Assembly: GCF_003073045.1 (NCBI RefSeq)
Contig: NC_037597.1
Coordinates: 4,522,717-4,586,716, forward strand
Direction of reading: 5' to 3'
Length of the DNA: 64,000 nt
Origin: Pomacea canaliculata
Lineage: Eukaryota; Mollusca; Gastropoda; Architaenioglossa; Ampullariidae
Every line of letters starts with the position of its first letter. Within the stretch, counting starts at the first letter, position 1. The translations under genes were made by a program, and so were the position numbers. Under the pieces are notes generated by a model. That model was not told the DNA's origin and did no database searches. It worked only from the letters and a program-made list of their open reading frames with translations. Positions 17,834-62,264 of the stretch are shown here, one piece after another.

Positions 17834-17835
17834 TG

Positions 17836-18877: not shown

Positions 18878-18878
18878 T

Positions 18879-19315
18879 TGGTGACCCCCGACGTGTTCAC
18901 GTAATAGTCAAACGTGATGCTGTACGAGGCGAGGCAGGTTTACATACATTTATTGTTACAAGAGTTTTTATCGTGCATCTTGGGTTTTGTTTTTCTTCCC
19001 GTCTCCGATTACACGGGTCTGCCGGCGTTTATAGTTCTGCCGACAGAGAGGGCAAGTAGGACTGGTCTTGTGGAACGAATGCGCGTGTCAGCGGACGGTC
19101 CGTGACATATTGGTGACCCCCGACGTGATCACCTTAATGGTCGAGGGTGATGCTGTACGAGGCGAGGCAGGTTTACATACATTTATTGTTACAAGAGTTT
19201 TTATCGTGCATCTTGGGTTTGATCTTAATAATTATTGGTGTCTCTAAGGAGGGACGCCGACCCTCTAGCGACCTCTTTACTTCTTTTTGTGGAACGAATG
19301 CGCGTGTCCAAACGG
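18879..19315 (+). repeat. Direct repeats of LTR end plus tRNA-Trp primer-binding site
   Basis: Copy 1 spans about 18838-18980 and copy 2 about 19071-19215. Each runs from the TGGAACGAATGCGCGTGTC motif through the primer-site-like sequence (18879 and 19111) into a shared block ending near TCGTGCATCTTGGG. A third partial copy (about 19224-19310) repeats the LTR tail but lacks the primer site. Copy 2 keeps the TGATC continuation of the tRNA-Trp complement while copy 1 has TGTTC. This is a rearranged, non-autonomous remnant. Confidence 0.6.
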
Positions 19316-19656
19316 TGCACGACATCATATTAATCGAAAGCATTTTAACATTCAATATACCTATGTGGTTTAGCGTTCTCTTTGTCAAAGATAAAGCTTG
19401 TTTGACGAGGGTGGTCAAGAGTGCCAGTAAGATCATTGGTTCTCCACAAAGACCTTTAGGTGAACTACACATCAGGGCTGTGAGGTTAAAAGCGGTCAGC
19501 ATCATCACAGACCCTTCTCACCCACTACATCGCCATTTCCAAATGCTACCCTCTGGCCTTAGATGGAAGCAAGTGGTCGCCAAGAAGAGTGCCTTTGCCA
19601 AGTCATTTTTACCAACCGCAATAGCACTCTTAAACAGGTCTAACAAATATACCTAG
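19300..19656 (+). pseudogene. LINE reverse transcriptase C-terminal fragment
   Basis: An open stretch of about 110 codons carries the tail typical of some non-LTR reverse transcriptases: a KIIGSPQRPLGEL segment, then DPSHPLHRHFQMLPSGLR and a SFLPTAIALLN ending. It is fused in frame to upstream LTR-derived sequence and lacks the catalytic reverse transcriptase motifs, so it is a 5'-truncated insertion. A related but more decayed tail is antisense in SRF intron 1 near 40.1-40.5 kb. The exact clade is not certain. Confidence 0.6.
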
Positions 19657-21954
19657 TCTGAATGTGTGTGTGTGTAAGAGAGTAAGATCGAGGAAATGCA
19701 TCTGACAATTGTGACATATGGTTAAGCATGAGTATAACTGCCTGAGTGTATGAGGTGTAATAGTAATCTCTTCAGTTTATTATTTTCAGTTGACTGTGGG
19801 AGCTCCCAGCAACAAAGGAAAATTTCTATCTCTGTTACGACCAGACATAGACAATAAAGACATATTGTATTGTATAACCGACCGAGCATCAGTTCGCATA
19901 CACTACTGTGTTAACAGCTGCCTTGGATATAATTCACCGAGCCTCCGTGACATCCGTGACGACGATTCGTCGACGTGGAGATAATTCTACGATCGTCTGT
20001 TCGGCAGACTTCTGTACCGACAGTGTGTGTGTGTGGACACTGAATCATCGGACTGCTGGCATCAGATGACCTGAAAGAGCGGAGTGTCAAGTGTCGGGAG
20101 GATTATTAACTTTCTACGGACGGTAGACAGTAGGCGGTAGAAGTATTTCATCGTTTTCTTTCTCATTCCATTGCCATTTATTTTTAAAACATTAAATGTG
20201 TTAATTGTTGGCCGGACCTTTTTGTTTGAAAAAGGTTGAAGAGTGCGGCGAGCGACTTGTTACATGCAGATGTTTATACACGCTCGCATACATTTGTAAC
20301 GCACTCTCCACGAAACGTTACAATTCCCATTAACTTTACAGAGTCACAGGAATTTTGTCTGTCTTGTGTTTTTGTGTTGGTAATGCGCGAACATCCTGGC
20401 TATAGCTGGGATACTTATCAACCCAGTACATCGACAGGCTCCAAGTCGGCGGGCAGTCGGTAACGGCGAAGGGGAAGAGGATGAAGAAGTGAGGATTTCA
20501 CGTCGGCGGCGACGGAAAGGCAAACAGAAAGAACGACAACGCGGGCGACGAAACACCACCTCGATTCGTTTTATCTTTCAAATCTCTCCATCTTCGTCGT
20601 CTTCTGCGGGGGCTCGTCGAGTGTTGTGTGTGTGTAATACGTCGTGCGTACGCAAGCTAAGTCCTATTACAAATCGCCCGCAGACGCTTTTAGCGCGGTG
20701 CTGAGCTTTGTGCGAGTGTTTGGTAGCTTGTTGGATTTTTGGGCTCTTTGTTTATGTTTTTCTCTCTTTTAGATCGTTTTTTCTCCGTTTTTTCTTTTGA
20801 CATTAATAAGCGTACATTTTGTACTGTTCCCGTGTTTGTGCATCAATTTGTGCACTGAGGAGCGGGAGCGGAGGCTGAAAGACATAATGGAGAGTATAGT
20901 GTCCTCTCGTCTAACAGGCTTGAGGGAGCCAGCTCTTCGCATTTTCGTTTTCTTCTTGGATTTGTTGTGCTTATAGTGCCTGTTGTACTTATCTGCACTT
21001 TTTCTATCCACCCAGTACATCGACAAGTACCGAGTCGGCGGGCAGTCGCAAGCGGCGAAGGCGCAGTGGCTGTGAAGGCGAAACTTGCAAAAAGATTCGG
21101 CTACGGAAATGTCAAAAGCAACAACGACAATGCGGGCGGCGAAACACCACTTCGATTCATTTTATCTTTCAAATCTCTACATCTTTTACTATTTTACCAG
21201 TCCATTGACTGTCGATCTGTCCCACTGACATCTTGATCTATGACTGTCATCAGGCAGAAGAAGGACCTGTTAATCCGCTGGACGCGCTGGCTTTAACAGC
21301 GGGTAGGTAATAGCGCCTGAAGGTTTTATTCGGGGTAAGTGAAGCGCTGGATATTAAATCCACCCCTGGCATTCCCATTAACTTTACAGAGCCACAAGAA
21401 TTTTGTCTGTCCTGTGTTTTTGTGTTTGTAATACGCGGGCATCCTGGCTATAGCTGGGATACTTATCAACCCAGTACATCGACAGGTAACGAGTCGGCGC
21501 TCAGTCGCAAACTGCGAAGGAGAAGCAGCTGAAGAAGAGGATATAACGTCGGCGGCGACGGAAAGGCAAAAAGAAAGAACGACAACGCGAGCGACGAAAC
21601 ACCACCTCGATTCGTTTTATCTTTCAAACCTCTCCATCTTCGTCGTCTTCTGCGGGGGCTCGTCGAGTGTTGTGTGTGTGTGAGTGTGTAATACGTCGTG
21701 CGTACGCAAGCTAAGTCCTATTACAAATCGCCCGCAGACGCGTTTAGCGCGGTGCTGAGCTTTGTGCGAGTGTTTGGTAGCTTGTTGGATTGTTGGGCTC
21801 TTTGTTTATGTTTTGCTCTCTTTTAGATCCTTTTTTCTCCATTTTTTCTTTTGACATTAATAAGCGTACATTTTGTACTGTTCCCATGTTTGTGCATCAA
21901 TTTGTGCACTGAGGAGCGTTGAGTTGTGACTGTGAGCGTGCTTGCGTGGGTAGG

Positions 21955-22722
21955 ACGTGTGGCGCCCGATTGCATAATGCAACACGCCCCAGTTCTGTTC
22001 ATTTTGTATATGAATCCACTTTCATCTTGCATCAAGTTTTACCATGTTTCTCATCAATCATATGCTGAAGACACACAACTGTACTGTTCCACTCCACCTG
22101 CTGGGTTACACTCTGCTACCAAGACCATAGAAACGACTTCAGAGACTGGATGGTAACAAACAAACTTAAACTCAACGATGATAAAACGGAAGGTCTGCTA
22201 TGTTCGAGAAGAAATCCATCTTCACTCGTTTGTCCATCAAATCACATCAAGGTGACCGAAACGAACATCACCTTTGCGTCCTTTGTCAGGAATCTGGGAT
22301 GTATTGTCACTGCAGACATGACTGTTACTAAACAAGTGACAGCTGTCTGTCAGTCTGCCTATTATGATAAACAAGTGACAGCTGTCTGTCAGTCTGCCTA
22401 TTATGATAAACAAGTGACAGCTGTCTGTCAGTCTGCCTATTATGATAAACAAGTGACAGCTGTCTGTCAGTCTGCCTATTATCATAAACAAGTGACAGCT
22501 GTCTGTCAGTCTGCCTATTGTGAGCTATTCAAGATCAGCGCCATCCGTCACATTCTCTCTACGCGCGCTGCCAACACTCTTGTCTGTGTGTTTGTTTTAT
22601 CCAGACCTAATTACTGTAATTCCTTGCTTGGTGTCCTGCATACCTTCTTCACAAACTCCAGAAAGTACAGAACTCCGCCACACGTCTGGTGCTTACAGCC
22701 AATGACTGTCCGACACGGGTAA
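21955..22722 (+). pseudogene. CR1/L2-like LINE reverse transcriptase fragment with internal minisatellite
   Basis: Sequence from about 21970 encodes the reverse transcriptase stretch PVLFILYMNPLSS followed by YAEDTQLY, where the active-site YADD motif has Asp changed to Glu. After a frame change it continues with NKLKLNDDKTE, an expanded 13-residue repeat, and IRHILSTRAANTLV...NYCNSLLGVL, all typical of CR1/L2-type LINEs. Upstream palm and endonuclease regions are missing and replaced by the composite repeat. It is decayed and not expected to be active. Confidence 0.75.
22330..22520 (+). repeat. 39-bp in-frame minisatellite, about five copies
   Basis: Units of 39 bases start at 22330, 22369, 22408, 22447 and 22486. 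Each encodes the 13-residue motif KQVTAVCQSAYYD or a near variant. The first three are identical, the fourth changes GAT to CAT, and the last runs into the normal downstream reverse transcriptase frame. Since 39 is a multiple of three, the frame is kept. The related copy near 24660-24780 lacks this array. Confidence 0.93.
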
Positions 22723-24469
22723 TGCACCCAAAAGAATTTTAATTAAAAAATGTGCCCATGACGTGGGATTCCACAACTAGGACTGACGTGACGGCTGATG
22801 TTTTGAAATGGTGCTTCCCTGTTGGGAGTCTTCATGTCAAAGACACTGAAAATCAGTACTAGACATGTGGTAGCTACATTCCTTAGGTTTCGCAATGTGT
22901 TTAGTAAAATACGGACGGCTAAGTGATTCTTGGTAACAGAACTCTTTCTGGAAAGAAAAGCCTTGAGCGTTTAAGTATTTCTTTATTGACATCGGTGCTG
23001 GGAGCGGAGGCTGAAAGAGGGAGCCAGCTCTTCGCATTTTCGTTTTCTTCTTGGATTTGTTGTGCTTGTAGTGCCTGTTGTACTTATCTGCACTTTTTCT
23101 GATGCTTCGGCATTAGGTTTGACTAAGTGTCCGTGGTTTTTATTCGTTCTTTTGTTAATTTCAACTTTCCCATCGAAATTAATCCTCTTTTGCTAACGCC
23201 ATCAAGTCGTGCCTGTGATAGACTTTGCATCGGTGCCAAATAGTCATGAGTTTCAACATTGTACTGCAATTTCTGCTTTGTGATCATTTGGATTTTCTCT
23301 TGACGATTTGATCGACGTGTTTAATTATTACTCTATTCTGCTCCAGTCCATTGACTGTCGATCTGTCCCATTGACATCTTGATCTATGACTGTCATCAGG
23401 CAGAAGAAGGACGTGGCATTCCCATTAACTTTACAGAGTCACAGGAATTTTGTCTGTCCTGTGTTTTTGTGTTTGTAATGCGCGGACATCCTGGCTATAG
23501 CTGGGATACTTATCCACCCAGTACATCGACAGGTAACGAGTCGGCGGGAAGACGCAAGCGGCGAAAGCGCAGTGGCTGTGAAGGCGAAACCTGCAAAAAG
23601 ATTCGGCTACGGAAATGTCAAAAGCAACAACGACAATGCGGGCGGCGAAACACCACTTCGATTCATTTTATCTTTCAAATCTCTCCATCTTTTACTATTT
23701 TACCAGTCCATTGACTGTCGATCTGTCCCATTGACATCTTGATCTATGATTGTCATCAGGCAGAAGAAGGACCTGTTAATCCGCGGGATGCGCTGGATTT
23801 AACAGCGGGTAGGTAATAGCGCCTGAAGGTTTTATTCGGGGTAAGTTAAGCGCTGGACATGAAATCCACCCCTGGCATCCATATTAACTTTACAGAGTCA
23901 CAGGAATTTTGTCTGTCTTGTGTTTTTGTGTTTGTAATGTGCGGACATCCTGGCTATAGCTAGGATACTTATCAACCCAGTACATCGACAGGTAACGAGT
24001 CGGCTCTCAGTCGCAAACTGCGAAGGAGAAGCAGCTGAAGAAGAAGATGATATAGCGTCGGCGGCGACGGAAAGGCAAAAAGAAAGAACGACAACGCGAG
24101 CGCCAAAACACGACCTCGATTCGTTTTATCTTTCAAACCTCTCCATCTTCGTCGTCTTCTGCGGGGGCTCGTCGAGTGTTGTGTGTGTGTGTGAGTGTGT
24201 AATACGTCGTGCGTACGCAAGCTAAGTCCTATTACAAATCGCCCGCAGACGCGTTTAGCGCGGTGCTGAGCTTTGTGCGAGTGTTTGGTAGCTTGTTGGA
24301 TTGTTGGGCTCTTTGTTTAGGTTTTGCTCTCTTTTAGATCCTTTTTTCTCCATTTTTTTCTTTTGACATTAATAAGCGTACATTTTGTACTGTTCCCATG
24401 TTTGTGCATCAATTTGTGCACTGAGGAGCGTTTGAGTTGTGACTGTGAGCGTGCTCGCGTGGGTAGGAC

Positions 24470-25013
24470 GTGTGGCGCCCGATTGCATAACGCAACACGC
24501 CCCAGTTCTGTTCATTTTGTATATGAATCCACTTTCATCTTGCATTAAGTCTCACCATGTTTCTCATCAATCATATGCTGAAGACACAACTGTACTGTTC
24601 CACTCCACCTGCTGAGTTACACTTTGCTACCAAGACCATAGAAGCCTGTATTAACGACTTCAGAGACCGGATGGTAACAAACAAACTTAAACTCAACGAT
24701 GATAAAACGGAAGACCTCCTATGTTTGAGAAGAAGAAAAATCCATCTTCACTCGTTTGTCCATCAAATCGCATCAAGATCAACGCCATCCGTCACATTCT
24801 CTCTACACGCGCTACCAACACTCTTGTCTGTGCTTTTGTTCTATCCAGACTTGATTACTGTAACTCCTCGCTTGGTGTCCTGCATACCTTGTTCACAAAC
24901 TCCAGAAAGTACAGAACTTCGCTACACGTCTGGTGCTTAGAGCTAGGAAACGGGACTATGCCATCCCTCTCATTCGTTTTCTACACTGGCTACCCATCCG
25001 TTCTGGCTATCGT
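24470..25013 (+). pseudogene. Second LINE reverse transcriptase fragment of the composite array
   Basis: This repeats the 21955-22722 fragment: PVLFILYMNPLSS, then a frame break, NKLKLNDDKTE, and a DYCNSSLGVLH stretch ending in HWLPIRSGYRV at about 25010. It lacks the minisatellite and a block around the expected NLGC motif. A possible continuation RIQYKLSVLCF appears at about 25326-25360 after roughly 300 bases of unrelated A-rich sequence, suggesting an insertion in the copy. Several frame changes show it is dead. Confidence 0.65.
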
Positions 25014-25599
25014 GTGTAGCAACGAATCCGATCGCTCTCCAGTGCAAAACAAACTACAACCACACGCGAGAACACCACAAATACACAATAAAAAAAAAAA
25101 AAGCGAAAAAAACAAAACAGATTCCTCACAGCTCAATATTGCTCCGTTCACACAACCGATTTCTTTTCCAGCTTCACCCCCTGGTGACCGCTCTTTTTTC
25201 TTTCCCTTCCAAACGTGCCAAAGCGTCAAAAAAGAAAATTGCGTCAGATTAGAGTGACGCAGCAGGCCCCTCCTCCTCTCTAGAACTAAGGCTCGGGCTG
25301 AGCCAGCATGCGACACGCGACACTGGCATCCAGTACAAACTGTCCGTGCTGTGTTTTTTGATTTCTTTGCTGGCACCTGCCTTGATTATTTCTCTGAGCT
25401 GCTCTTCCCTTGCACCTCAGCTAGACAAATCTGCACCTTGTCTGATGATCGTCTCCTTACTCTTCCTTTCATCAGAACAACAACATATGGCCACAATGTC
25501 GATTTGTAATGCGCAGGTATCCATTCCGAAGAATGCTCATTGCGCAGAAAAAAGAACAAATGAAGAACAAAAAAAGTGAACAAATATATAAAACTCTTT

Positions 25600-26011
25600 G
25601 GAGCCGATCCAACTGAGTAGCAGGTATACCCCACAATGCACTGTTACAATAGTCCAATCGTGATGTGATGGTGGCCACAGCAAGTGAGTTGGCAGCAGCT
25701 TGAGTCAGCATGGGCCATAGTCTACCTAAAGTCCTCAAAAAGTAGTAGGACTTAGCCACAACAGAACTGACATGGTTGCACATGGAGAGCTCTGCATCAA
25801 TAAACAGCCCTAGGTCCCGTACACAGTCAGCAAAGGCTATGGAGGCATCACCGACCTGCACGGCACTAATGCCAATCTGCTCCCGTCTGGCCCTGGGGCC
25901 ACACAGTAACGCTTCTGTCTTGTCGTCATTGAGTTTAAGACGATTCCTGGTCATCCACGCCTTCACCGCAACACAACAAGATTCAAGTCGTTGAAGCGCA
26001 ACCCTAGCCAC
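25600..26011 (-). pseudogene. Antisense CR1/L2-like LINE reverse transcriptase fragment
   Basis: About 135 codons are open on the minus strand. They contain WMTRNRLKLNDDKTEALLCG, VRDLGLFIDAELSMCNHV and ITSRLDYCNSALWGIP, the C-terminal part of a CR1/L2-type reverse transcriptase. The catalytic YADD segment should lie before 26011 on this strand and is not visible. The fragment stops near 25600 in A/T-rich sequence. It is less diverged from the family pattern than the plus-strand copies and belongs to a different subfamily. Confidence 0.75.
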
Positions 26012-26035
26012 TGCCGGGTCGGGGGGAAACTGTTC

Positions 26036-27365
26036 AGAATCTGCGCACTAGGGTAACAGACAGCAACTTCGAGGCCAAAGTTCTGGTCAAATTCAATTCT
26101 ATGAAGGACTAAAAGAATGTAGATTTGTTTTAAGGTTACCGGTACACTCCAAAAATTAAAATCCATATTTTAAATATCTTTAAGGGTTTTTAAATATAGA
26201 GTAACAAAATAACATAAATATAGCACTTTAAAACTGTTTTTGAGTACCTAAAGTGAAAATTGTGACTTTAATCAACGTTTTTGTTTTCAAAACGTACAAG
26301 CATTTTAAAAACAAATTTACACAATACCATAAGTCATATACCAAAGGTTTTGGATTTTTTGTAAACTAGAGGCACCGATAAGAAAACTTATGCATAAGCC
26401 ATTTTGATATCTCAAGATTTCTAGGAGATATAAAAAATCAGATATGGTACCCCCCGACTCAGTGTGAATGTGGCAATTAAATATTTAGAAAAATGTTAAT
26501 TTTATCAAAAGTAATGTTTATACCATATTCTCAAATTCATCACTTTGTAGCTTATGCATTTCTAAACAAAATTGCAAAATTTTACTGTTGTAGCACAAGC
26601 CAATCTTGAGAAATATGTTTTTATAGTTTATGACTGGATGTCAAAAACGACAAACAGAAATTCAAGCTTAAAGATTTAAAATAAATATATCTTGTATCGG
26701 ATCATTTTTGAAAAATTTATTTCAGTGTTTATATGCTACACTTGACATCCTACTATATAATTAAAGTCTATTCTAGTATGCCAGGACTATACTTTTCATC
26801 CTATCAGCTTTTGGAAACAATTAGTTTGTGTTCTTTTCTTTGTTTTCAGTGTCAGTGTTAGAAAAATATGCCTTATGATCTGCTTGCCTAAATTAGATTA
26901 AGCAGTGTTTTACTTATATTTCATGCAAACTCATTTATTTCAATGGTCTGTTGTTTATTGTCACAGCATTGATAAGAGGTTGACATTTTTCATCACCACA
27001 TAACCTAACTTATTGAAAATTCCAGCAGGTACCTGATACTTAAGCATCTGTTTAGTTTTCATTTCTAAGTAATAGGGAACAAATAGTTATAGAAAACAAA
27101 TGTTTATCGGAAAACTTATATAATTTCTTTTGTCACTAAAACAGGATGAGGAAGAAGATCCAGAAATGTTTAATATAATCGTAAAATACGTGTACTTATT
27201 GTGTGAAAAAGGCCGAGGGAGGAAGGGGGCAAGGAATGAATGAAAGCATTTATGGATTCACTAAATAAAATTGTCGGTATATCGCAGTTCTCCGTTTCAT
27301 TATTATAATAAAAACTTTGTAAAGCAAGTAATAGTGTTTTGTATGTATGTTTGATGTTTGTGTAT
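26036..27365. other. AT-rich sequence without recognised genes
   Basis: No coding sequence, repeat unit or RNA gene was recognised. Base composition is strongly AT-rich compared with the CG-richer array to the left, marking a clear compositional boundary near 26.1 kb. Confidence 0.4.
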
Positions 27366-27561
27366 GTTGCTACAGCCAGCTGGCTACAGCTAACTTGTTA
27401 TAACATCAAGCTTTTAAAAGTAGCCAAAAGAAGCTGGCTACATTTTAAAAGTAGCTGGCTACGTTTTGGAAAATTGTAGCTGTAGTGTAGCTGGCTACGT
27501 TTTGAAAAAAAGTAGCTGTAGCCTAGCCGGCTACAAATTAAAAGTAGCTTGCCCTTCCCTG
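27366..27561 (-). mobile_element. hAT-like transposon end with subterminal GTAGCTGGCTAC repeats
   Basis: The interval carries several variants of a GTAGCTGGCTAC core separated by T-rich spacers. It ends with AAAGTAGCTTGCCCTTCCCTG. Read on the minus strand this begins CAGGGAAGGGCAAGCTACTTTT, close to hAT-type terminal repeats of the form CAGNGNTGGGCAAG, which often have such TAGC-rich subterminal repeats. The opposite end and an 8-bp target duplication were not found, so it may be a solo end. Confidence 0.45.
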
Positions 27562-28454
27562 CTCTCGTCTCGGCATACACACATGTGCCCCTAACAAATT
27601 GAGAAAAGTCGCTGATGTTGGCACGTGTTTCCATTGCCATAGCAATATCATCAACGGCCAAATGAACAACAATGGCGGCGACGTTCTAGGCAAAATCGTT
27701 CCAATAGCGCCTATCATGCCGCTCGAATGAAGTGGGCGAAGTATAAAGCATGGCATAACGATATCTACCAATCTACATTCACCTACCGGCAAATTCTCAC
27801 CATACTACGCTCAGTGAAGTGTCGCGTTTGCGCCGCAGGACGGGTTGAAATCCTCAACTGGCAAGGAAATCAACACGACTTCACCATACAGTGTACACTT
27901 TGTAGTTTTACAACAAAATTATAAAAACACGAAAAGGTATGCAAAGGCTGTGATTTTGTTGCTTTCTTGTGCAACGTCTTTGCTCTTCCATATTCTTAGA
28001 TTTCTTTTAGTTACAAGTTGTATTTGTTTCTCTTAAATTTTACTTTGTTGCTGTTTTAACTGCTTGTGATTGCCTTGCTTTCTGTTTCTTTGGATTTTAC
28101 TGCAACGGTTACGCTCTCCGCCATTACCTTAGATCTGATTCCTACTGCTCGTACTGTTTTCTTTTTTCTAAAACTTAGTCTCACTTTAAATTCTCACATG
28201 GCGGACCTCCACTATGTTGTATAGCCGTGAGTACCTTCTCGCACTCTCTCTTACTTCGGCGACCCTCCATTATGATACTTCCACCTTTCCAACTAATATC
28301 CTACCTCAAGACTCGACCGTCCATCAGAAAAAAAAGCGAAAGAGAGGTAGGAGAGGAGTTCAGCGCCGGCTCTAAACGACAAATGTAAATCTCCACCACT
28401 ACTACACCTTAGCACCAAACGAGGTACAAATGGTGGGAAAAAGAAAGGTGACCT

Positions 28455-29040
28455 AAATTTTAATGTGAATTTTCCTTTGTCAAAGAGCGGGCGACTTTCA
28501 ATAGAAACGAAAAATGTGACAAGTCTATGTGTTGGTCACTTAAATGTGCAGTCAGTCTGCAACAAGGCTGTGGACATTCATGATTTAGTGTTGGATAATG
28601 ACTTTGATGTATTTTTCTTGTCAGAGACATGGTTAAAAGAGATAGGTGATGAGTCAGTAATCAAAGACCTTACGCCACAGGGCTATACATTTGCACAAAA
28701 TCCCAGGAGTGGTAGGAGTGGGGTGGAGTTGGAGTTTTATTTAAAGTACATTTGAAATTTACCGTGTTGAAGAGACAAACACAGTACAGGTCCTTTGAGT
28801 ACATAACAGCAAGACTGACATTAGCCAAGCAGACATTAGAGATCATTTGTTTGTATAGACCTCCTCCATCTAACAAGAATCAGCTTTCCGATTCTCTGTT
28901 TCATGAGGAATTTACTATGCTGCTGACAGTTTATTCACAAAGGAGAAGATTCTTATTTTGGGGGATGTAAATTTTCACTTTGATAGACCTCAAGATAGTG
29001 ATGTGAAGCGGTTGATTGAATGGATACCTGCGCCTTACAA
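28455..29040 (+). pseudogene. LINE apurinic endonuclease domain fragment
   Basis: The plus strand encodes LCVGHLNVQSVCNKAVDIHD, then DFDVFFLSETWL, the N-terminal signature of the endonuclease of CR1/L2/Jockey-type LINEs. After a frameshift near 28730 it continues with RSFEYI...LEIICLYRPPPS and, in another frame, a GDVNFHFD motif near 28962-28985. The fragment is cut off near 29040 and followed by a short ATC microsatellite (29047-29060). With at least two frame breaks it is a dead copy. Confidence 0.75.
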
Positions 29041-29060
29041 ATAGACATCATCATCATCAT

Positions 29061-30006
29061 ATAAAATGACGCAAGGGAAGGGACCGGAGGAATTCTGGGG
29101 AATAACGTTCGAGGAAAGGAACGGGTCGGGAGTTAACTGGTTATAACGAGTTGGTAGGACAACCCTGCTACATTGTTTTCGTGGGTTAGATTTACAGGCA
29201 CGTGTTTGTAATTATAATTATTTTTTAGATTGTTAAATAACATAAATATATTTTAGACTTTATGGCTGTCAGAATCTTAAATATATATATAATCAAGAAC
29301 GTTCACTCGCGCAAATCTTCGCACGTATTTTTGTTTGTGCCATATATAGATAAATAGAGCAAAATTAATTGAGTCAGTCTCTCTCTCTCTTTTCTTCTTC
29401 AGTTACAGATTTTCAGGTTTCATCAAAAGTTGTCAAGGTACTAGTATCCAGATTTTAAATATTCATCGATCAGCAAATAAATAAAAGTTGGCTTGTATAG
29501 CTCTTTATCCTCCCCTTTGGACAAGCTAAGGTGCTTCACGAATGACAGGTGTTATGACGTATAAATAAGATGACGTCAGAACAAAATGACGGCACTCCAC
29601 GCCAAAGGGTGGCGTCTACACACAGCACGAAAACAATGGTTAGTCCTATCAGCAACGGCATTAGGCTTGGGATTAATACAAGTTCTCTTCAGCAGTCAAA
29701 GGGCTACAATCCTAGAGAGTTTTTTTTAGGCAATGTGGTCTTAATAAAATTGAAAGGTGGAAAGAAACAGAATTCAGGCAGTTGCTATACTTTGTAGTGG
29801 TATTGTAGCTTTCAAAGAAACATCTCACGGCTTTTGTGTTATCCTTTTCTTCTTTTTTATAGACATATATTACCTAGCAAGTTAGACTTTTGGCAAACTT
29901 ATGCTGCTTATGCTCATAGTCGTTTATGTATGTTTGAATGTATGAATATACAAAGATATATAGCCCAGGATTTTTAACATAAAATGTTCATGGTCATCTT
30001 GCTAAC
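29061..30006. other. Spacer between LINE fragment and mosaic block
   Basis: No gene is supported. There is a CRE palindrome at 29571-29578. A 75-codon ORF starting at 29570 has no recognisable domain. Confidence 0.4.
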
Positions 30007-30342
30007 ATTTGTGCATTTATAGTTGCCGGTACAATAGCAGTAACACCGAGTCAGATCATCGTGTATCAAACTCCACAAAGGGTGGTATATGCTACATCAA
30101 CCACCCGTGCAACACTTGGGGATCGAACCATCTTCAACTTCCAACAACCTGCCACCGTCATCTCCATAACACAGCCAGGAGTGGTTAGTTGGTTTTTCAT
30201 CTGTTAGCATAAGTGCACCTAATATAGACACAGATTCATCTTTGCGTCCATACAGACCTGCTTGTCCATGCATGCTTACACATATTTGCAGTTGTCTAAT
30301 TCTGAGTCAGTTGAAAGAAATGAGTAATTGCACTTTCGAGAT
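30007..30342 (+). pseudogene. Decayed copy of SRF exon 7 with flanking introns
   Basis: This matches SRF 46960-47286 including parts of both flanking introns, so it is a DNA-level copy and not a retrocopy. The exon-like part is 30023-30183 (161 bases, against 162 in SRF 46978-47139). The reading frame has no stop and the GTTAGT donor is kept. The first base after the acceptor AG is changed, and one base is missing near the 3' end. Coding changes include Q-G to Q-R and several Thr/Pro replacements. No MADS-box copy lies nearby. Confidence 0.85.
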
Positions 30343-31739
30343 CACTTTTGAAATATATTCACACTAAGAAGTTTTGAACATTCGGGGTGCACTGAAACTT
30401 TTCACCAAACAAATTTCTACAATTTCCACACAAAAATTATTTTTCAATATATTCCTGCAAAAAATTAATACGATCTGAAGTCATCTGACGGGCGTCATGG
30501 TACTTCGTCCCGAAATCCCGGAAACTTTGATCATAATTACTTTTATCTAATAGATAACGAAAGTCGTGCGTAAAAAAATGGTTGTCCGAACGTTACTTTT
30601 AAATAATTGCTGAGAATATTTACAGCAATATATAATCGTGATGACCTGTGTTCCGTGTCGACTTTTTACACACATAAAAACCAGAAGAGCAGTTAGCTTT
30701 TAACTACATTTAAGGACACTTCATGCACATATTTTCAACAAATACAGCACACACACACAAAAAAAAAATAAATAAATCCAAGAAAAGAAGCAGAAAACTT
30801 ACCTGGTTGTATACTTCGCGAAGCAGAAAGTTTCCTCTGTCCATCCACCAGAAGAAGGTTCTTTATTTTTCACGGTTGATAATTGCAGCTGTCGGTTTCT
30901 GTGACCCATAAAGTCGTGTGTAAAAAACAAGTGCATGGTTGTCTGAAAGCTAATTTTATGAAATATCTGCTAATGATCTCAGAAACATAGACAAATTTAC
31001 AGCAGTTATTTACATTTTGCTTGAAACGGAATTTGTCCAGTCGTGATGACCGTTGTAATAGGACGAACGTACGTACACTTACCTCGCACACGTACGACGT
31101 ATTATAAACACAAAACGACGAAGCCACGCAGATGAAGATGATGATGAGATTTGTAGTTGATGTAGAAGCCGGATAAACGTAGAAGCTTGGAGAAATGGTA
31201 GGAAGAAGATGGCGGAGGAAGACCGTTATGTTGTCGCTGCTCACTCGGCCGTAGAACTCTGCTTTCTTCAGGCAGCGCAAAGCAGACGATCAGTTTTGAC
31301 GTCATTTCAAGGCTATTTTTATCCACACCTCTTTCGCTGATTCGCGCGGAGCTTGACGTCATTCCCATTGAATGACATCATGGGTTAAAATTTTCTTCAC
31401 GTAAGCAAAAAATGTTTTTTCCATTTAGCCTTTGTATAAAATAAGCTAAGTAATTTAAAAGAATTAATAGTAATAAAGTAAGATATCAAAGGAGAGTGGA
31501 AGGTGAATATGTACAAAAGTGGTGGTTAAAACAGGTATGTACAGGTGTCCTAGAGTTGGGGAGTATCTCTAGAGACCTCATCTAGTTTTCATGCATGTAT
31601 TTTGGTAATTGGCCTCAAAGCAGTTCAGGGAGTTCAATTGTTCAAGATGGAGAGGAAGGCTATTCCACAGCACACCCCTTGTTTCAGACTTGATTTGAAA
31701 AGGTATATTTTAGGGATGGGAATATTAAATTTTAGAGAA
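30343..31739. other. Filler between mosaic segments, with imperfect direct repeats and two CRE palindromes
   Basis: Positions about 30555-30650 and 30908-31050 resemble each other (shared AAAGTCGTG, TGGTTGTC and CGTGATGACC motifs). Positions 30819-30860 resemble 44310-44350 in SRF intron 3 (shared AGAAAGTTTCCTCTG). Two TGACGTCA palindromes lie at 31297-31304 and 31354-31361. No coding region is supported. Confidence 0.4.
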
Positions 31740-31769
31740 GTTCCAGCATTATTTTAGGAAAGTACTATA

Positions 31770-32610
31770 GGGTTCATCTGTACCTGTTTACTTAAAGTAT
31801 TCAAGTTGACAGATGTTTAGCTGGATTCATTAAGACTAGGATATGTTGACCAATTTTATAATGCGGGCTTTCAATTTCTTTTTTAGGAAGTTTGAAAAAC
31901 AAAGAAGCATGTAAACTTTCATGAAAGTTTAATAAGGTAACATTTGACTTTCAATTCAGACTAGAGCAAATTAATGTTTTTATTTCTGCATTAAATTTAT
32001 TTATGGTATTTTGCAGGTGATTCATATTGTTGGTTTCTATTTCATTCCTGACATTTAGACCAAAAACCAATATTTCTTGGCCGCAGTTTCTGCAATTACT
32101 GCAGTAATTTTCTGGTGGATATCCTTAGCCTAGATAAATTTGTTTAGGACTTCAAGAAGAAACTTTGTAAAAATGAAGAGAGGCCTTTAGAAGCGTTAAC
32201 TGATCAGTGAGTGGTATAACTGGCACTATAAATTAAGTAAAATTGAAACTGGAGATATCTTCAGCCATCTGCCTTCTTTTATTTAAATAAAGCATCCATC
32301 ATAATGGTAGCCAGTTAATACGTTTGTTTCTGATGTACAGTTAAATAGACATTTTGCTTAGGTAAAGAATATTTTAAACATGTTTTACATTCTTTGTGTA
32401 AATCCTTGACTTTACTAACTAAATACAGACCATGCACACATTGCCTCTTTGTTGCAATGTGGTGAAGCTTTCCCTTCACCAACACCCTCTTCTTCGCTGT
32501 GTTGGGTATGTACCTCTTTAGAATTCTCTCTATATATGTAGTTTGCCACAAAATAGCCAGCCATCTGGTTTATGACACAGTGAATGGACACTGTATAAAG
32601 GTAATGATCT
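31770..32610 (+). pseudogene. Decayed copy of TMEM87 exons 13-15 and introns
   Basis: Successive pieces match TMEM87 8840-8920, 9340-9660, 9680-9880 and 10380-10430. The exon 13-like part (about 32047-32134) has lost its acceptor AG and has TAG where TMEM87 has CAG. The exon 14-like part (about 32418-32505) has an altered acceptor and an internal deletion that shifts the frame. The exon 15-like part is about 32560-32600 and still has a GTAATG donor. Intron sequence is retained, showing segmental duplication. It cannot encode a working protein. Confidence 0.85.
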
Positions 32611-32841
32611 GTATTACCTGCAGGTATTGAATGCATGTTGTTTTAGAACAATTTAGTAGCATCTGAACAGTGGATAGCCCTGAAAAAAATTAAGAATATC
32701 TTCACAATTACGATTAATGCTGATGTGGATGGATTTGATGAACTTCTGCACTTGACATCTTTTGTTAGGGATGTTTGTATGAAACTGATATTGATTTATT
32801 AACATATTTGCAAATATGCTTGTGCATTTTCTTTCAGGAGG

Positions 32842-33010
32842 GTATTGTATGTGCAAAAAAAGTAATTTTGTGCAGTAACCTCTCAAGTGAGAGACTGTTA
32901 TTTGATTTTCAATGGCAGGAGGGCAGCAGATTATTACCATACCTGTTCCTTTCTCACTTGTTAATTCCCAATAGGTAAGTTGTTAAAACACCAACATGAC
33001 GCTTTTGTAT
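32842..33010 (+). pseudogene. Decayed copy 1 of SRF exon 8
   Basis: This matches SRF 47640-47840 with flanking intron. The exon-like part 32919-32974 is 56 bases like its source (47734-47789). It keeps acceptor and donor but ends in TAG where SRF has the last Gln codon CAG. Flanking sequence at about 32640-32780 resembles about 33045-33210, so the exon 8 copies lie in a small tandem duplication. Confidence 0.85.
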
Positions 33011-33234
33011 GCTGCACATATATAAATAATAGAGCTATGAGGCTGTGACAAGATTGTGTGCTTGACATCTTTTTCTGAGGGGTGTTTGTAATATAATCTT
33101 ACCGTTTCAAGTATATAAAAATAAGTTGGTAGCATCTGAACATACAGCCTTTCTCTGAATATAAATCTTACCTTTTCAAAATATGTAGGAAATATCTGAA
33201 TAATCAGTGCAGTGTTTGCTTGACATTTTTTTGT

Positions 33235-33395
33235 GAAGGTGTGCAGATAGAACACAGTAATTTTGTGCTGTAACCTCTCAGAACATCTCAAGTGAGAGAA
33301 TGTTATTTGACTTTCATTGGCAGGAGTGCAGCAGATTACTATGTGAGTATAACCTAATTCTAAACAGGTAAGCTCTCAAAACACCAAGATTCCAT
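33235..33395 (+). pseudogene. Decayed copy 2 of SRF exon 8
   Basis: A second copy of the same SRF exon 8 region. The exon-like part 33324-33367 is only 44 bases, with an internal deletion removing most of the IPVPVSLAN coding part, though the following GTAAGC donor and intron match SRF closely. It lies about 400 bases after copy 1. Confidence 0.8.
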
Positions 33396-33479
33396 ATAAA
33401 CGGTTTGTATATTCAGACTATTAGAAGTACCATTTTTTGTTATGTTCATATCAAGAGATTTATTTGTATTAAATGTATT

Positions 33480-33860
33480 ACAAGCTTATTTTGTTTGGTT
33501 ATTAAAGCTTAAAATGCGTGCAATTGCCATTTCATATTTGGGCCACAAAACACAGCTTTGCTATACTTACAATCATCTTTGAAGAGTTTGGTAGAACATT
33601 TGGGATATGCTGGCAGTGGGGGAGAGGCTATTAGTTTTTATATTGTCTCAAGATGTGTAAATTTAACAGAGAACAAATTTTCTGTCATTTTTTTTATTCC
33701 CCTCCAGAGGGTATGAAGATATGGAGCATAAAGCAAAGTCAATGGTTCTCCTAAACAACGTATTAGCAAGAAAATGGTAAATTTCTGACACCTTTTTCTG
33801 CATAGCCACAAAGAACACAAGAATAAAAATTGTATTTTAAAATATTATGTAATCTGGAAT
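33480..33860 (+). pseudogene. Decayed copy of TMEM87 exon 18 and its intron
   Basis: This matches TMEM87 11340-11690. The exon-like part is 33708-33777, with an extra base in the AAAGCAAGT stretch that shifts the frame. The acceptor CAG and donor GTAAAT are kept. It follows the SRF exon 8 copies directly, so pieces of the two genes alternate. Confidence 0.85.
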
Positions 33861-33899
33861 CTGAAAAGAGATTGCCTTACCTTTATATTAAATCTTCTA

Positions 33900-34304
33900 A
33901 AACATAAATGCTGACTCTGCCATTTTATTCAAACAACTTTTGGCAAAAATTCACAGAAGTCAGCAAATACTGTTAGCAAAGTTTAGTTTCAAATATAAGC
34001 AAATAATTATGCACTCTGCTCAGACAATTTTTGTTTGCTTGTTTTGGGTTTTTGTTTTGTTTTATAAGAAAACTTTAGCTACCACTGAAGAGATTAATAT
34101 AACCTGTAGTTTCTGAAATAGAATTTTATCTTATTGGTAGCCTTTTAACTAAGTAATTATTTTATATCATATCGGAAAATTTGGGCCATTATAAATGGAG
34201 TTTGCACAATTCCAAAGAAAGAAAATGCTGATACTCATATTGCAAGCTTCATTTACACTAAATCATACCAAGCCAAAAAAAAAAATTACACAGTTTTAGA
34301 CCAA
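33900..34304 (+). repeat. Copy of TMEM87 3' flank at the TRMT61A 3' end
   Basis: This matches about 16785-17205, including the GCACTCTGC, GACAATTTTTGTTTGCTTG and TTTTAGACCAA segments. Small deletions distinguish the copies. The homology runs to about 34304 and so covers the TRMT61A stop codon (34296-34298) and all sequence just downstream of it on the minus strand. Confidence 0.8.
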
Positions 34305-38097: not shown

Positions 38098-38123
38098 GAT
38101 GTCTTTGATTGATGGTCAAGAGC

Positions 38124-38213: not shown

Positions 38214-39120
38214 CAGCAATATGTACACGCTTTGTGTATTTGTGGATAAAATATAAATAAATTCATCATTTTAGAAGAAAAAATTTAAACAGCCTCTTAA
38301 TTCTTGTCACACAGTACAGGTGGGATTATGAACAACAAGAGAATTTAATAATAAAACCTCATACTCAGGGAAGATCGATAGCTATATGTGCCTACAGAAG
38401 TATAGTATATATCGGTTTGAACAATATTACAAACAAAAATAGTAAGTAGAGAGTACAGTATAATGAACCTATGATACAAATGCGACGTGTGGTCATTATT
38501 ATTCTTTCAATCAAATCACGAACTAATATCCATTAAAGCGACTACTGGGAGAGTGCGCGTGTGTTTAATTTTTTGGGGTTGGGGAGGTAATTAAGTTGGC
38601 GATGCGTGTTTTTTAACGAGGAAATGTTTCGTTCTGCGGTTGATTCTGTTACATGTTTCTTTTTTCTTACCCAACAGCCTTTTGTAGAGTGTTGTTACTC
38701 CAAAGTTTTGACAGAGTATGTGTTTGTGTTGCATTGTTTGGTTGCGTCTGACATTTTCCCACGAAGGTCAAAAACTGTCAATCAATGTAAATAAGGGTCA
38801 CGCACAACCTCATTCGGAACGCCATTTCTCCAAACATGGCTCGCACCATGGAAGGAAATATCACGGTATTCCTGCGCCTGCATTTTGAAACTGGCGATGT
38901 TTGTACTGTAAAGTTCAGTTTGGTGGAAAATAACTCATTTATTTCTAAAATTCCATAACGACTCAATACCATTATGAAATATCATGAAACGAGCATCTCT
39001 GTTGTAGATCTATGTTTCATGCGGCCGAATATATCTAATCGTAGCACACGGTTCCCGTGTAAGGCAGAAGTCACGTAAAATAAGGTAGTAACTCTTGGAT
39101 ATTTTCCTTTGGCGATAAGA

Positions 39121-42100
39121 ATGCAGACAAGTAACCATTCCGGTGCAGTTACTACAGTTTCCGATTTGAACAGCGCCACAGGTTTGAATGGATGCTCCGG
39201 TTTTGCTACTGCAAATGGGCCCGGAGTGACACACGTTCCGCCTGATAACTTCATCTTCGAGCAAGTGGACCCCACGCGTTCAGACGGAGATGATGACTCT
39301 GACAGCGAACTGCCCACTGGCCACTGCGGCCAGGGACAACAGTCCACGCCCACCTCTGGCCTCAAGCCTGGAAAAAAGACAAAGGGTAGAGTCAAGATTA
39401 AAATGGAGTTTATTGAGAACAAGTTGAGGCGATACACAACCTTCAGTAAACGTAAGACTGGAATCATGAAGAAGGTAAGTAAACTGTTGTTAGGCGCAAA
39501 TATTTTTACTTACAGTGCTCGGTTATTGTTTTCAGCTTATTTACACTTAATTGTAAATCTAAAAAGATAACTTCAAATCATATGCCCAGTATTCAGCTAG
39601 TAGGTTTATCTGAATTTACATAGATACATAGAGTTTGCATCAAGATAGGAAAGTAATGGATCATATACATAAAGGTATAAAAAGACAAAATAAGTTAGAT
39701 CCCTTTTTGAGAGGGGTTCTGCTATTCCATATTTCAAATCAAAAACCATTCAATGCCTTTTTCTATTCTAGTACAGTAGCATTTACAAAATTACATTAAC
39801 AAAAATTAATCAGTCTATATTGTCTGTATAAGGCACAAGTCCAAAACAGAAATTTTTCTTTAGCTCACATGAACATTTAGAGGACATGTTGCAGGTTAAT
39901 ACACATATGCACATGCACAGACACACCTCACTTCCCCAAACACATAGCACCCACTAACCAAAATAGTGCTAAAATACAACAAAATAACCCCAAGAGACAG
40001 AATAATCTTAAGAGTGTTTCTCATTAAGGATGGTGATGGCTGCCGGCATGAAGGATCTTTGGTGTGCATTTCTTTGTGCAAGTGACACTTTGTATCACCT
40101 GCCAGAAATTAGTACTTGAAAGTTGGGTTGAGAGGGTGGGTAAGGTCTGCAATAATGTGATTCTCCATCTTCTGACATCATGGAGATACATATCAGAGAG
40201 CAAGTTTTTTGGGGGTGTTTTTTGTTGGTTTTTTTTTTTTTTTTTGAAAATTATCTTGCTTGCCTGGTTGAGAACTCTGGCCAGCCTTTCCTTGTCTTTG
40301 ATGAGTATGTGGCTGTACCAGTGCTTATTTATACATAGTTTACATGACCACAAAATAGATCTATCCTTGACTGTGCCAAGGGTCTTAACTCTGGCATCCT
40401 TCTGCATCTGCTGACTGTTGATGTCCTGTGATGGGGAGAGGTGCTTGGTGCCATCTCTTCCCTCACATCCTATATCAAAGGCCATCACCTCTGTTTTTTA
40501 ATATTCTGCTCCAAAAAGCTATGTTCAAACCATTCCTCTAGCTCCTCAGTGCAGGCAAGGTACTGTGACAGGGACTGTTTATTCTTGAGATAGGCCACTA
40601 GGGCTATATTGTCACACGTTTTAGAGTAGCATTGTTAAAAGTGAGCTTATTAGTGTACACAGGGAACAAGATGGAGGGAAGCACCACACCCTAGGGGGAT
40701 TCCCACATTGAGGATCTGCTTGTCTGACAGAATCATTCACTGAGAAATTCACTCAAAATTTTGCTGAGAATGTTGTCATAGGATTATTTATTCTCCTGCA
40801 TGTAATAAGATATTAGCCACACTCTATTTTGCATCATGCTAGGCTTATTTCACATTTAACATATTCTAGTATTTTCAACCCAAACAGTACATCTATTCTT
40901 AAATTTTGTTGTTGCAAGGATGTCTGTGCACTTAATTGCTTCATAGTGCTGTTGTATGATTAATGATATTAATGATATATATGTATTTTTTTGGTCATGG
41001 TAATTTTGCATCATATTGTTATGGTACTTTTCCATATGTTATGAGCATGAGTGTATTTAATAAGTTATTATATAGGGACCATGTATATTTTCACAATTCT
41101 GTGATATCCCCATGCCCATGCTAATCTTAGTTGCCATGACATTTACCATCAGCACCACCAGTGCTAGTTTGCAGATCATGAGACTTAAACAGAAGTCTTC
41201 AGTATGTTAAACAAAAACTTTTGCAAGAGTGACCAGGTAGTAAACTTCTTTAACTGATGTCTAAGACTGGAAGATTATTACACTCTTTCTCAAATGAAGA
41301 GAGCAAGATGTTTTTCAGTTAATGTTATGTCAGAAGGTTATACATCTAGAAATAAAATAAAACTAAGAGACCAAGAATAAATTTGATCCTTGCTCATTTC
41401 CAGTAAACCATAACCATTTTTAGAATTTTGAATAATAGGTTATTTGTAAATAATCAAAGAAAATAGTCTTGTAGGGCAGAAATGTTAGTAAACTGCATGG
41501 TAACTATAAAATATTCCAGCTGTTCTTACATTCCATTTGCCTTGTATTTCAACAGGCTTATGAGTTGTCAACACTGACTGGTACACAAGTGATGCTGCTT
41601 GTAGCTAGTGAGACAGGACATGTGTACACATTTGCTACACGCAAGCTGCAGCCAATGATCACCAAGTGACAGTGGAAAAGCACTCATACAGACCTGTCTG
41701 AATTCTCCGGACCCTCCACCAGGCTCCTCTGCCCATACTACACAGGAGCAGCGCATGAACCCTTCAGGCTTTGAGGAAACGGAGTTAACGTACAGTGTTG
41801 GAGAAGATGACAGCAAGGTGTGCCATATGTTTCTTACAAAAATCAGTACTTTTGCTTTTTTGGGGCTTTTAATTTTTTTTATTAAGAGCAAACTCTTATG
41901 GACACTTTTAGTCCAGGCCTTGACCTTTGATTATGATACCCAGGTATGCACAAATTTGAAATATTAAAAAAAAAATCAAAAGCTGTAAACATGACAAAAA
42001 GATGTATCAAAATTATAATTAAAATTCAAAGTTAGGAGGAAAAACCAATTTCTGTCACATTCCATCTTGAAATAGCACTTTCCTGTAAAAACTGTGTTTC

Positions 42101-45100
42101 CAAAATGAAAATTTTGATCCAGGCTTACAACTGATGATTACTGCCTTGTTTCATCCTGTTTTTAATGGATTTGAATAATCACACATGGTGAAAAATTGCT
42201 AGCTGTCGTCATGTATGCACTTGTGTCACCATCACCGTTCAAACAAAAGGTAATTGTGGAAAAGTTCAAATCTTCAAATTAGCATCATCCTGTTCCCATG
42301 TTAAGAGATGTAGCCCTATTCAAATGCTATTCACCTAGCTAAATACCAAAACTTTTGGATATAACACACACAGGTGGGCCTGAACTTAATACTTGCTGAA
42401 GAAGCCCAGATTTGAAGAGTTAATATGTGCCAGCATAATTTTGTTTCAGTGTAGCAGTGCTATTCCTAATGTTACATCTTGTAGAAATTAAATGATGTTT
42501 GATCTGTTTGTCTTTACATCTCTTGCAGTTATTTTTTCATGCAGTTGTCAAAAGTATTTGAAGCTGTGTAATTATCAGGGCAGAGTTTAAAAAACCCTTT
42601 GCAAGTACTTTAGTCACACAGTAGAAATAGCTAGAGAGCTATTATCTGAAGTGGGTATGCCCAATTTTTAAGGTTTTCTGTTTTCTTAACACATCCAAGT
42701 GGTGCTATTTAATTTGGTATCAGCTGGCTCTGGGCATTCAATGTCCCCTCACTCCATAGGACTAAAAATTGTAATTCTGTCATTAACTTTTTAAAATATC
42801 TATTTTTGTTTATCTCTTGAAGGAAATCTATAATTCATGCTCTCACAATTTCCGTCATTACCCTTTGATCACAAGGACTAATAATCATTCTGGTCCACTA
42901 TGGTAAACACTCCCTATCCCCTTTTATACCATCTCATTGTGTATTTCATTTTTTTAATAGACCTGTATCATGTTCGCTGCCTAACTGAGCTGTGGCAAAG
43001 GCCACACTAAACATTGGCAGTTATGGGACCTACTTATTGGCTTATTGGTGATGTGATCTGCTTATAATTTCCTGAAGGGATTAATAAAGTTGTTTTGTAT
43101 TTGTATTTTATTTGATTAAGTCTCATATACTTGCTGCAGCTTTTGTATCATCTGCAACACAAAAAGTAGGATTCAGATAGTTATTTACCAAGCAAGAGGC
43201 TGTCACATTAAGCATGCATGGTATGACTTGAATACCTCTGTGCTGACAGTTGATGACAGGGAATGGAGTGATTAAAAAAGCACATTTATGTTTCAGATGG
43301 CCACAGCTACCCTGCAGTCATCTCTGGACTCTCAGAGTCAGACTCCACCTGCCACGGTGAGTTGCCCATCACTGCAGTGCTCTTCACTGCAGCTTATACT
43401 GCTGCATCAAGATCTTACAGACCAACCCGGATGATTTGCGCTTTATGCAGATATCGGTAGATATCAGAGGTATAAATGTAACCTGTAAATTTCAGCCTCC
43501 AAAACCCATAGGTGCAGTCTTTTCACATCCAAATAATCTGAAATGTCGCTCATTCTCTCTTTGTGTTTAGTGTTGACTGCTGGCAACATTGAGAATGCTG
43601 CACTAGCATGATGTAGTACACTGTTAGCGGCGCTCATTGATCGCAGGTGCGAATCATGTACTTTGCTAGCGAATAATTAATTGATGGTTGGGTTTTGGAG
43701 GCTGAAATTTACAGATTACGTTTATATCACCATCTTCTTCTTGTTCCTAATCACACCCAATGGAGTATAGTACCGCAACTACACCACACAAACTTGTGTT
43801 GTCTTTGCGGTTTCTGTAGCAGAGGTCTTTTGTGGGTGGTGTTGCTAGCCCCATGCCCAACCCTCCTCCTTCATCCTGGCTTGGGTCCAGCAGGTTATCC
43901 GGGGGTTGCCAGGTGGAGTTTTATATCACCTATATCTACCAATATCTTCACAAAAACAAAAAAACAACAACACACAAACCATTCGGGTTGGTCTTTAACA
44001 ATAGCATTAGCACCTCTGTTGGGTGTTACTAGCTTCATTCTGAGTTCTTATATTTCATGATTTACAAATTGGGTTCCAGTGCTTATCCTTATTTTTCTCA
44101 CACTTTATGCAACTGTTACTTTGCTACAATTAGCAAAACTGAATAGAAGATTTGGTAGTTGGAGTATTTTACAGATTGTTTCCTGTATAGTGATGTTGAC
44201 ATTCTTACCTGTTGTTTGGTATACAACCTACATTTATCCCTTAGGCTGTGAGCATTATTTCAATATTATAGCATGTAACTTACCTACTTGGTGTGCTCTG
44301 TGGGACAGAAAGTTTCCTCTGCCCACCCACCAGAAATGGGTTCCTGATTTTTCAGGGGAGATAATGGCTACAGGAGGAGAGGGTTGGCTCCAACTTTCAT
44401 GTGTTGTGTCCTTGACACAGTCTATGATGCTATGTACACTACCTTTACAGCTACTTGTCTCTGGAATCCTATGGTTTTACCTTAGGGACTGGTAGCAGCC
44501 TAATGTTACCTGTCATATTATTTGTTCCAACATATAAGCTGTCATAAGAAAATTGCATGCATTTTAAAAGCTTTATTGTTGGAATCTTTCCAGCATGTTC
44601 CTGTTTATACTGTTCAGCAGCAAGCAGTGGGCGGATCATCCTCTGCTAGTCATGTTGTTCCTATATCCACGACAGTTCCACAGCTAACTGCCTACGCAAG
44701 CCAGCCCATCACAGTTGCAGCACCACCTGTGGTAACAGCTCCTGCAACAGGTGAAAGTGGAGGAGGAGGTGGTGGTGGCAAAGTGACAGGCATTCCTCTC
44801 CAGCTCCCTGGCCTTATATTGCAGACAGGTGTGCATGTGTGTCTGCATGCATCGTTCTTTATTTTTCCTAACTGTCGAATGGGATTGTTATTTATATATG
44901 TTGCCTTAGTATTGCTTCTGTCTAGAAAATTGCAACAAGAAAGGATCTGTGACCTAAAAACATTGTTCTGCCATTGTTCTCAGAACTTCTAAGATGATAT
45001 TTATCATGGGTGTATTCAAAGTTGGATACATCTACTTCTTTAGTATTGCATTCTGTTGTGCAAGGGTATGTTTGTCATACATTTGGGGGCGGCTCGGTGG

Positions 45101-54921: not shown

Positions 54922-62264
<7,343 letters not shown>

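What the first reader, a model, noticed from the sequence alone, without database searches (positions are those of the whole stretch)
30007..34304. Mosaic block: alternating decayed pieces of two neighbouring genes, SRF and TMEM87
Within 4.3 kb the order on the plus strand is SRF exon 7, filler, TMEM87 exons 13-15, SRF exon 8 (twice), TMEM87 exon 18, TMEM87 3' flank. Introns are retained, so these are DNA-level copies. The sources lie on opposite sides of the block, about 20 kb to the left and 14 kb to the right. Alternation is not explained by one tandem duplication with deletions unless the two genes were once interleaved. Template switching during replication (MMBIR/FoSTeS-like) or repeated non-homologous insertion fits better. 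All pieces keep the orientation of their sources.
Basis: partly seen in the sequence, partly recalled or inferred. Interest (0 to 1): 0.8.

Follow-up and report, generated by a model that had tools for sequence, protein, structure and literature searches.

The report
Decayed tandem duplication in snail genome
The patchwork of broken pieces from two neighbouring genes is mostly the wreckage of an old side-by-side duplication of that stretch of chromosome, later eroded and filled with repeats, with one small part (two copies of one exon) still out of place; it is a well preserved example of an ordinary process.

Summary
In detail: broken copies of TMEM87 (8.8-17.2 kb) and SRF (46-47.8 kb), introns kept, all in source orientation. 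The window is an animal chromosome (440 Mb assembly; probably apple snail, recalled). It also missed that homology of the TMEM87 flanks reaches the stop codon of TRMT61A, the gene between TMEM87 and SRF. That fits a large tandem duplication of TMEM87-TRMT61A-SRF with reciprocal loss: left kept TMEM87, right kept TRMT61A and SRF. Divergences are compatible with one age overall (p = 0.16), though the new SRF piece alone is more diverged (p = 0.013). Most of the filler searched is dispersed repeats. One duplication plus deletions does not place the two SRF exon-8 pieces inside the TMEM87 copy; two tandem duplications do, or exchange between repeats, since fragments of one repeat family bracket both. 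Template switching remains possible, above all for that step. Ordinary duplication decay; low interest.

The parts
8840..17206 (+). Surviving TMEM87 gene, 3' half and 3' flank: source of the T pieces; last coding frame ends at 13403, flank runs to the relic of the TRMT61A stop codon
17178..17206 (+). Relic of the TMEM87/TRMT61A boundary in the left copy: aligns with 34278-34304, which holds the TRMT61A stop codon
   Evidence: 34260-34360 against 17173-17274 scores 33, reached by 0 of 1000 shuffles; a shorter test around the final 11 bases is weak (3 of 1000)
17275..17833 (+).
   Evidence: (40 of 47 candidates scored)
17834..30011 (.). About 12 kb between the two left SRF pieces; both sampled ends are dispersed repeats (17836-19070 and 29186-29995); the middle was not searched genome-wide and holds internal direct repeats
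30012..30337 (+). SRF exon 7 and flanks, 91.7% ungapped identity to 46967-47283, one-base deletion near the exon end
30338..31767 (.). Filler between S7 and T13: dispersed repeats at 30342-31054 (with a gap) and 31401-31767, reaching both neighbours; 31055-31400 had no listed match
   Evidence: (40 of 591 candidates scored)
31768..32654 (+). TMEM87 exons 13-15 with introns (87-91% ungapped); source stretch 8911-9332 with the preceding exon missing; exons frameshifted
32641..32856 (.). Repeat fragments between TMEM87 exon 15 and the first SRF exon 8
32861..33014 (+). SRF exon 8 copy a (90.3% ungapped), stop codon at the exon end
33046..33239 (.). More fragments of the same repeat family, between the two exon-8 copies
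33239..33385 (+). SRF exon 8 copy b (89.8% ungapped), exon deletions of 7, 2 and 3 bases
33386..33481 (.). Fragment of the same repeat family, flush with exon 8b and with TMEM87 exon 18
33482..34304 (+). TMEM87 exon 18 joined directly to the TMEM87 3' flank (source stretch 11742-16784 missing), running to the TRMT61A stop codon
34296..36885 (-). TRMT61A (GCD14 family): three coding stretches recognised by Pfam, right copy only
39079..49063 (+). Surviving SRF gene (source of the S pieces); exons recognised by PDB, Pfam and short motifs

Best explanation
A stretch running from the 3' half of TMEM87 through TRMT61A into SRF (about exon 7 or 8) was duplicated head to tail. One copy of each gene was kept: TMEM87 in the left copy, TRMT61A and SRF in the right. 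The redundant parts (left TRMT61A and SRF, right TMEM87 exons 13-18 and 3' flank) decayed by deletion, frameshift and insertion of dispersed repeats. What is left between the two surviving genes is the alternation seen. Shown: homology, order, orientation, low copy number of the pieces, repeat nature of most filler searched, broken exons. Inferred: the duplication itself and reciprocal loss. Not settled: how SRF exon 8 came to lie twice inside the right TMEM87 remnant. My preferred sub-step is a second, overlapping tandem duplication or an unequal exchange between repeat copies, because fragments of one repeat family bracket both exon-8 pieces.
For: SRF relics 17275-17833 and 30012-30337 are colinear with SRF 46110-47283 and start 69 bases after the TMEM87 flank homology ends. 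The last ~230 bases of the first relic match only SRF among the places listed in the 440 Mb genome (40 of 47 candidates scored). TMEM87-flank homology reaches the TRMT61A stop codon in both copies, as expected if TMEM87 and TRMT61A were neighbours before the copying. The right T remnant runs straight into TRMT61A and SRF. All T and S pieces are plus strand. Non-exon divergence does not differ significantly among ten segments (chi-square p = 0.156). A translated search of all frames of 20 aa or more from 34200-50400 against 17100-34300 (E up to 0.001) shows no remnant of TRMT61A beyond its own stop region and none of SRF exons 1-5, as reciprocal loss predicts. Two tandem duplications plus deletions give the full order.
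Against: One duplication plus deletions does not place the exon-8 pieces. The 17.3 kb SRF piece is more diverged than the rest (76 of 536 against 149 of 1477 non-exon sites, p = 0.013). Order alone is weak evidence: 505 of 2520 orders of the same seven labels are also reachable with two duplications. The short test around the TRMT61A stop is marginal (3 of 1000). No related species could be compared, and the duplication junction cannot be read (repeats cover it). A second, complete left TRMT61A-SRF copy was never seen; its former presence is inferred from relics only.
Confidence: 0.8

Rival explanations
1. One complex replication event (MMBIR/FoSTeS-like template switching) copied short pieces of TMEM87 and SRF between the two genes in a single step.
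For: Divergences are compatible with one age. The two exon-8 copies show no excess of shared differences from the source (private differences 8 for 8a, 22 for 8b, 5 for the source). Homologies overlap by several bases at some repeat/gene joins, for example 32641-32654 and 33482-33494.
Against: It does not predict that the SRF relics lie in source order from 17.3 to 30.3 kb, nor that the T remnant ends at the native TRMT61A boundary. T and S pieces are separated by repeats or other filler, so the original joins cannot be read.
Confidence: 0.12
2. A variant of the best explanation for the exon-8 step (odds not exclusive of it): one large tandem duplication, then a templated or repeat-carried insertion that placed the repeat/exon-8 composite (32641-33481, about 840 bp) into the TMEM87 remnant in place of source stretch 10485-11336 with exons 16-17 (about 850 bp).
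For: Both exon-8 pieces are flanked on both sides by fragments of interlinked repeat loci that I treat as one family; the composite fills the gap between T15 and T18.
Against: Outside the block the exon-8 part of the query matched only the SRF source (8 of 8 candidates scored), so no captured and amplified fragment is seen. The repeat fragments lie in an order different from that in L016, which a simple insertion does not predict.
Confidence: 0.35
3. Assembly chimera or unmerged haplotypes.
For: No reads could be checked here.
Against: Pieces are 86-92% identical to their sources without gaps, broken, and separated by repeats, unlike alleles. The window lies within one contig of a 24-contig assembly; if this is Pomacea canaliculata, its published 440-Mb genome is long-read (PMC6129957, start of abstract in the listing).
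Confidence: 0.03

Closest known systems
Partial tandem (segmental) duplication followed by decay and reciprocal gene loss (general knowledge)
   Same: Head-to-tail copies in one orientation, one copy of each gene kept, pseudogene remnants between them, repeats inserted
   Different: Two SRF exon-8 pieces are out of the order that one duplication gives
Complex duplications by replication template switching (MMBIR/FoSTeS; PMC6258378 and PMC5120786, seen only in the listing)
   Same: Short neighbouring pieces interleaved
   Different: Most pieces here keep native order and a native gene boundary; original joins are not readable; two plain duplications suffice
Circular-DNA-mediated segmental duplication (PMC7450558, abstract and outline seen)
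   Same: Changed order of copied segments without inversion
   Different: That model turns A-B/C-D into B-A/D-C, described for large, in part distant duplications; here the copies are local and only exon 8 is displaced

Membership tests
Tandem duplication with reciprocal loss | Adjacent copies in the same orientation | tested here: met
   all T and S pieces plus/plus
Tandem duplication with reciprocal loss | Remnants colinear with source, native gene boundary kept | tested here: met
   exception: the two exon-8 pieces
Tandem duplication with reciprocal loss | Same divergence for all pieces | tested here: inconclusive
   p = 0.156 over ten segments; the 17.3 kb piece is more diverged, p = 0.013
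Tandem duplication with reciprocal loss | A single duplication accounts for the order (defines the one-event form only) | tested here: not met
   at least two tandem duplications
Tandem duplication with reciprocal loss | Single ancestral copy in outgroups | not testable with these tools
   the genome tool states that this genome has no relatives held
MMBIR/FoSTeS rearrangement | Microhomology at piece-to-piece junctions | tested here: inconclusive
   overlaps at some joins, not tested against chance; filler separates T from S pieces, so original joins are not readable
MMBIR/FoSTeS rearrangement | All pieces made in one event | not testable with these tools
   needs related species; none held
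Gene capture by a mobile element | Other copies of the element carry the captured fragment | tested here: not met
   outside the block exon 8 matched only the SRF source (8 of 8 candidates scored)

The most novel reading that the evidence does not exclude
The ~840 bp repeat/exon-8 composite replaced TMEM87 exons 16-17 in one templated event that drew alternately on a low-copy repeat family and on SRF exon 8, leaving a fossil of germline template switching in an invertebrate.
Probability: 0.15. Interest if true: 0.4.

Novelty: new member of a known kind. Interest (0 to 1): 0.2.

Why it matters
It shows that an alternating mosaic of two genes can come largely from plain tandem duplication and decay, so interleaving alone should not be read as template switching. 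As a locus it offers a case, datable once relatives are compared, of reciprocal loss among three neighbouring genes.

Tried and rejected
Rejected: one tandem duplication plus deletions as the full account. Rejected: the 17.3 kb SRF piece as a mere dispersed repeat; 38 of the 40 places listed lie within its first 329 bases, but only the piece itself and SRF cover the rest. Rejected for lack of support: duplication by recombination between copies of the repeats now at the S7/T13 junction; the representatives tried (L004-L008) have no match in the window next to the source breakpoints near 8840 or 47283. Led nowhere: alignment of 32655-32860, 33015-33238 and 33386-33481 to TMEM87 or SRF introns (within the range of 100 shuffles each); much of them proved to be repeats.

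Rows set aside: 30824-30886 with 44306-44368; 31077-31153 with 20662-20579 (inverted); 29477-29591 with 17378-17265 (inverted); 29018-29048 with 25526-25496 (inverted); 34035-34077 with 11295-11336. The first two lie in or beside repeat filler, the third pairs two dispersed repeats; the last two are short and were not pursued. In one search one further match was set aside: a minus-strand frame at 40027-40497, in an SRF intron, with 19261-19428 (35% identity), taken as a repeat. One search listed only exon 8a against the SRF source, not 8b; 8b rests. In one search exon 8b shows more differences than because the three-way alignment placed its deletions otherwise.

Pfam gave nothing for 4 of 6 proteins and 3 of 5, all frames from repeats or filler, so any retrotransposon name for them is a recalled impression. 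The paper search found no paper holding all five terms; some searches were read as listings only.

Full report
What is there. Self-alignment of the window finds all the pieces named in the finding, at the stated places and on the plus strand. Ungapped identity to source is: SRF intron piece 17275-17833 85.8%, SRF exon 7 91.7%, SRF exon 8a 90.3%, exon 8b 89.8%, TMEM87 13a 87.1%, 13 90.8%, 14 89.8%, 15 87.8%, 18 88.4%, 3' flank 89.8%. The sources are TMEM87A (PDB 8hsi/8ctj, E 6.5e-60) and SRF (PDB 1hbx, E 7.4e-19; Pfam SRF-TF). Between them, on the minus strand, lies a GCD14-family tRNA methyltransferase gene, which I call TRMT61A from recall. The copied exons are broken: a one-base deletion in SRF exon 7, a stop at the end of exon 8a, deletions in 8b, and indels in TMEM87 13, 14, 15 and 18.

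First, 17275-17833 copies SRF 46110-46666. It starts 69 bases after the TMEM87 3' flank homology ends and is in order and orientation with the exon-7 piece at 30 kb, which copies 46967-47283. Its first ~330 bases hold a dispersed repeat (38 of 40 listed places fall in bases 1-329), but its last ~230 match only SRF among the places listed (40 of 47 candidates scored) and are 87.2% identical there. Second, homology of the two TMEM87 3' flanks runs on to 34304/17206, over the stop codon of TRMT61A (34260-34360 against 17173-17274 scores 33, reached by 0 of 1000 shuffles; a shorter test around the last 11 bases is reached by 3 of 1000). So the left copy also seems once to have bordered TRMT61A.

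Filler. The genome search places the window on contig C8 of a 440,159,624-base assembly in 24 contigs. I take this to be the apple snail Pomacea canaliculata, from recall; a 440-Mb long-read genome of that species is in print (PMC6129957, start of abstract seen in the listing). Between SRF exon 7 and TMEM87 exon 13 there are dispersed repeats reaching both neighbours (30342-31054 with a gap, and 31401-31767; 40 of 591 candidates scored; ends read), while 31055-31400 had no listed match. Both sampled ends of the 12 kb between the SRF relics are repeats (40 of 330 and 40 of 156 candidates scored); its middle was not searched. Much of the sequence around the two exon-8 pieces consists of fragments of interlinked low-copy repeat loci that I treat as one family (8 of 8 and 14 of 14 candidates scored). 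The SRF exon-7 piece and the TMEM87 pieces were found only in the block and at their sources. The tool warns that it skips very common words, so these counts are not proof of rarity.

Age. Non-exon differences in ten segments do not differ significantly (chi-square 13.1, 9 d.f., p = 0.156; exon limits are my own reading). Against this, the 17.3 kb SRF piece taken alone is more diverged than the rest (14.2% against 10.1%, p = 0.013). TMEM87 13-15 and 18 plus flank do not differ (p = 0.49), nor do SRF and TMEM87 pieces overall (p = 0.36).

Model. Take the old order TMEM87, TRMT61A, SRF and duplicate from about TMEM87 exon 12/13 to SRF exon 7/8. Keep TMEM87 at left and TRMT61A and SRF at right, and let the rest decay. 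This gives, in order, TMEM87, TRMT61A stop relic, SRF relics, TMEM87 13-18 remnant, TMEM87 flank, TRMT61A, SRF, as observed. Only the two exon-8 pieces, between T15 and T18, do not fit. A label search over tandem duplications followed by any deletions shows that the full order needs at least two (36 of 5940 two-step products contain it). Without exon 8, or with one exon 8 next to exon 7, one suffices; with one exon 8 where it lies, two are needed. The control is weak: 505 of 2520 orders of the same seven labels are also reachable with two. Orientation adds some support (seven of seven plus; 1 in 128 if random), though template switching need not invert pieces.

The exon-8 pieces. They lie in the order repeat, 8a, repeat, 8b, repeat, filling the place of TMEM87 exons 16-17. 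In a three-way comparison the private differences were 8 (8a), 22 (8b, part of it badly aligned) and 5 (source), with 102 identical and 2 all-different sites; so 8a and 8b show no excess of shared changes, and a late local doubling is not supported. Exchange between repeat copies or a second overlapping duplication would give this arrangement; template switching could too. No copy of the repeat family was found beside SRF exon 8 in the surviving gene, so exchange would have involved a repeat now lost or present only in the decayed copy. I cannot decide without relatives, and the tool states that it holds none for this genome.

Verdict. This is best read as a decayed tandem duplication with reciprocal loss, an ordinary process in a good state of preservation.

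Noticed in passing
window 47841-48320: SRF intron 8 holds a dispersed repeat fragment (48151-48294 recurs at other loci), flanked on both sides by similar ATATCCTTCAG sequence, suggesting a later insertion into the surviving SRF gene.
   Followed up: partly
window 20323-24943: Cluster of long internal direct repeats (pairs 76-99% identical, the longest 1269 columns at 94.6%) in a G+C-richer stretch (about 43-47%).
   Followed up: no
window 22329-22523: Five copies of a 39-base tandem repeat, 98% matches, inside one open frame.
   Followed up: no
window 57760-58098 and 59404-59709: Inverted pair of about 67% identity.
   Followed up: no
L024:25-886: Tandem array with a period of about 61 bases at about 97-98% identity, beside a member of the repeat family that brackets SRF exon 8.
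   Followed up: no
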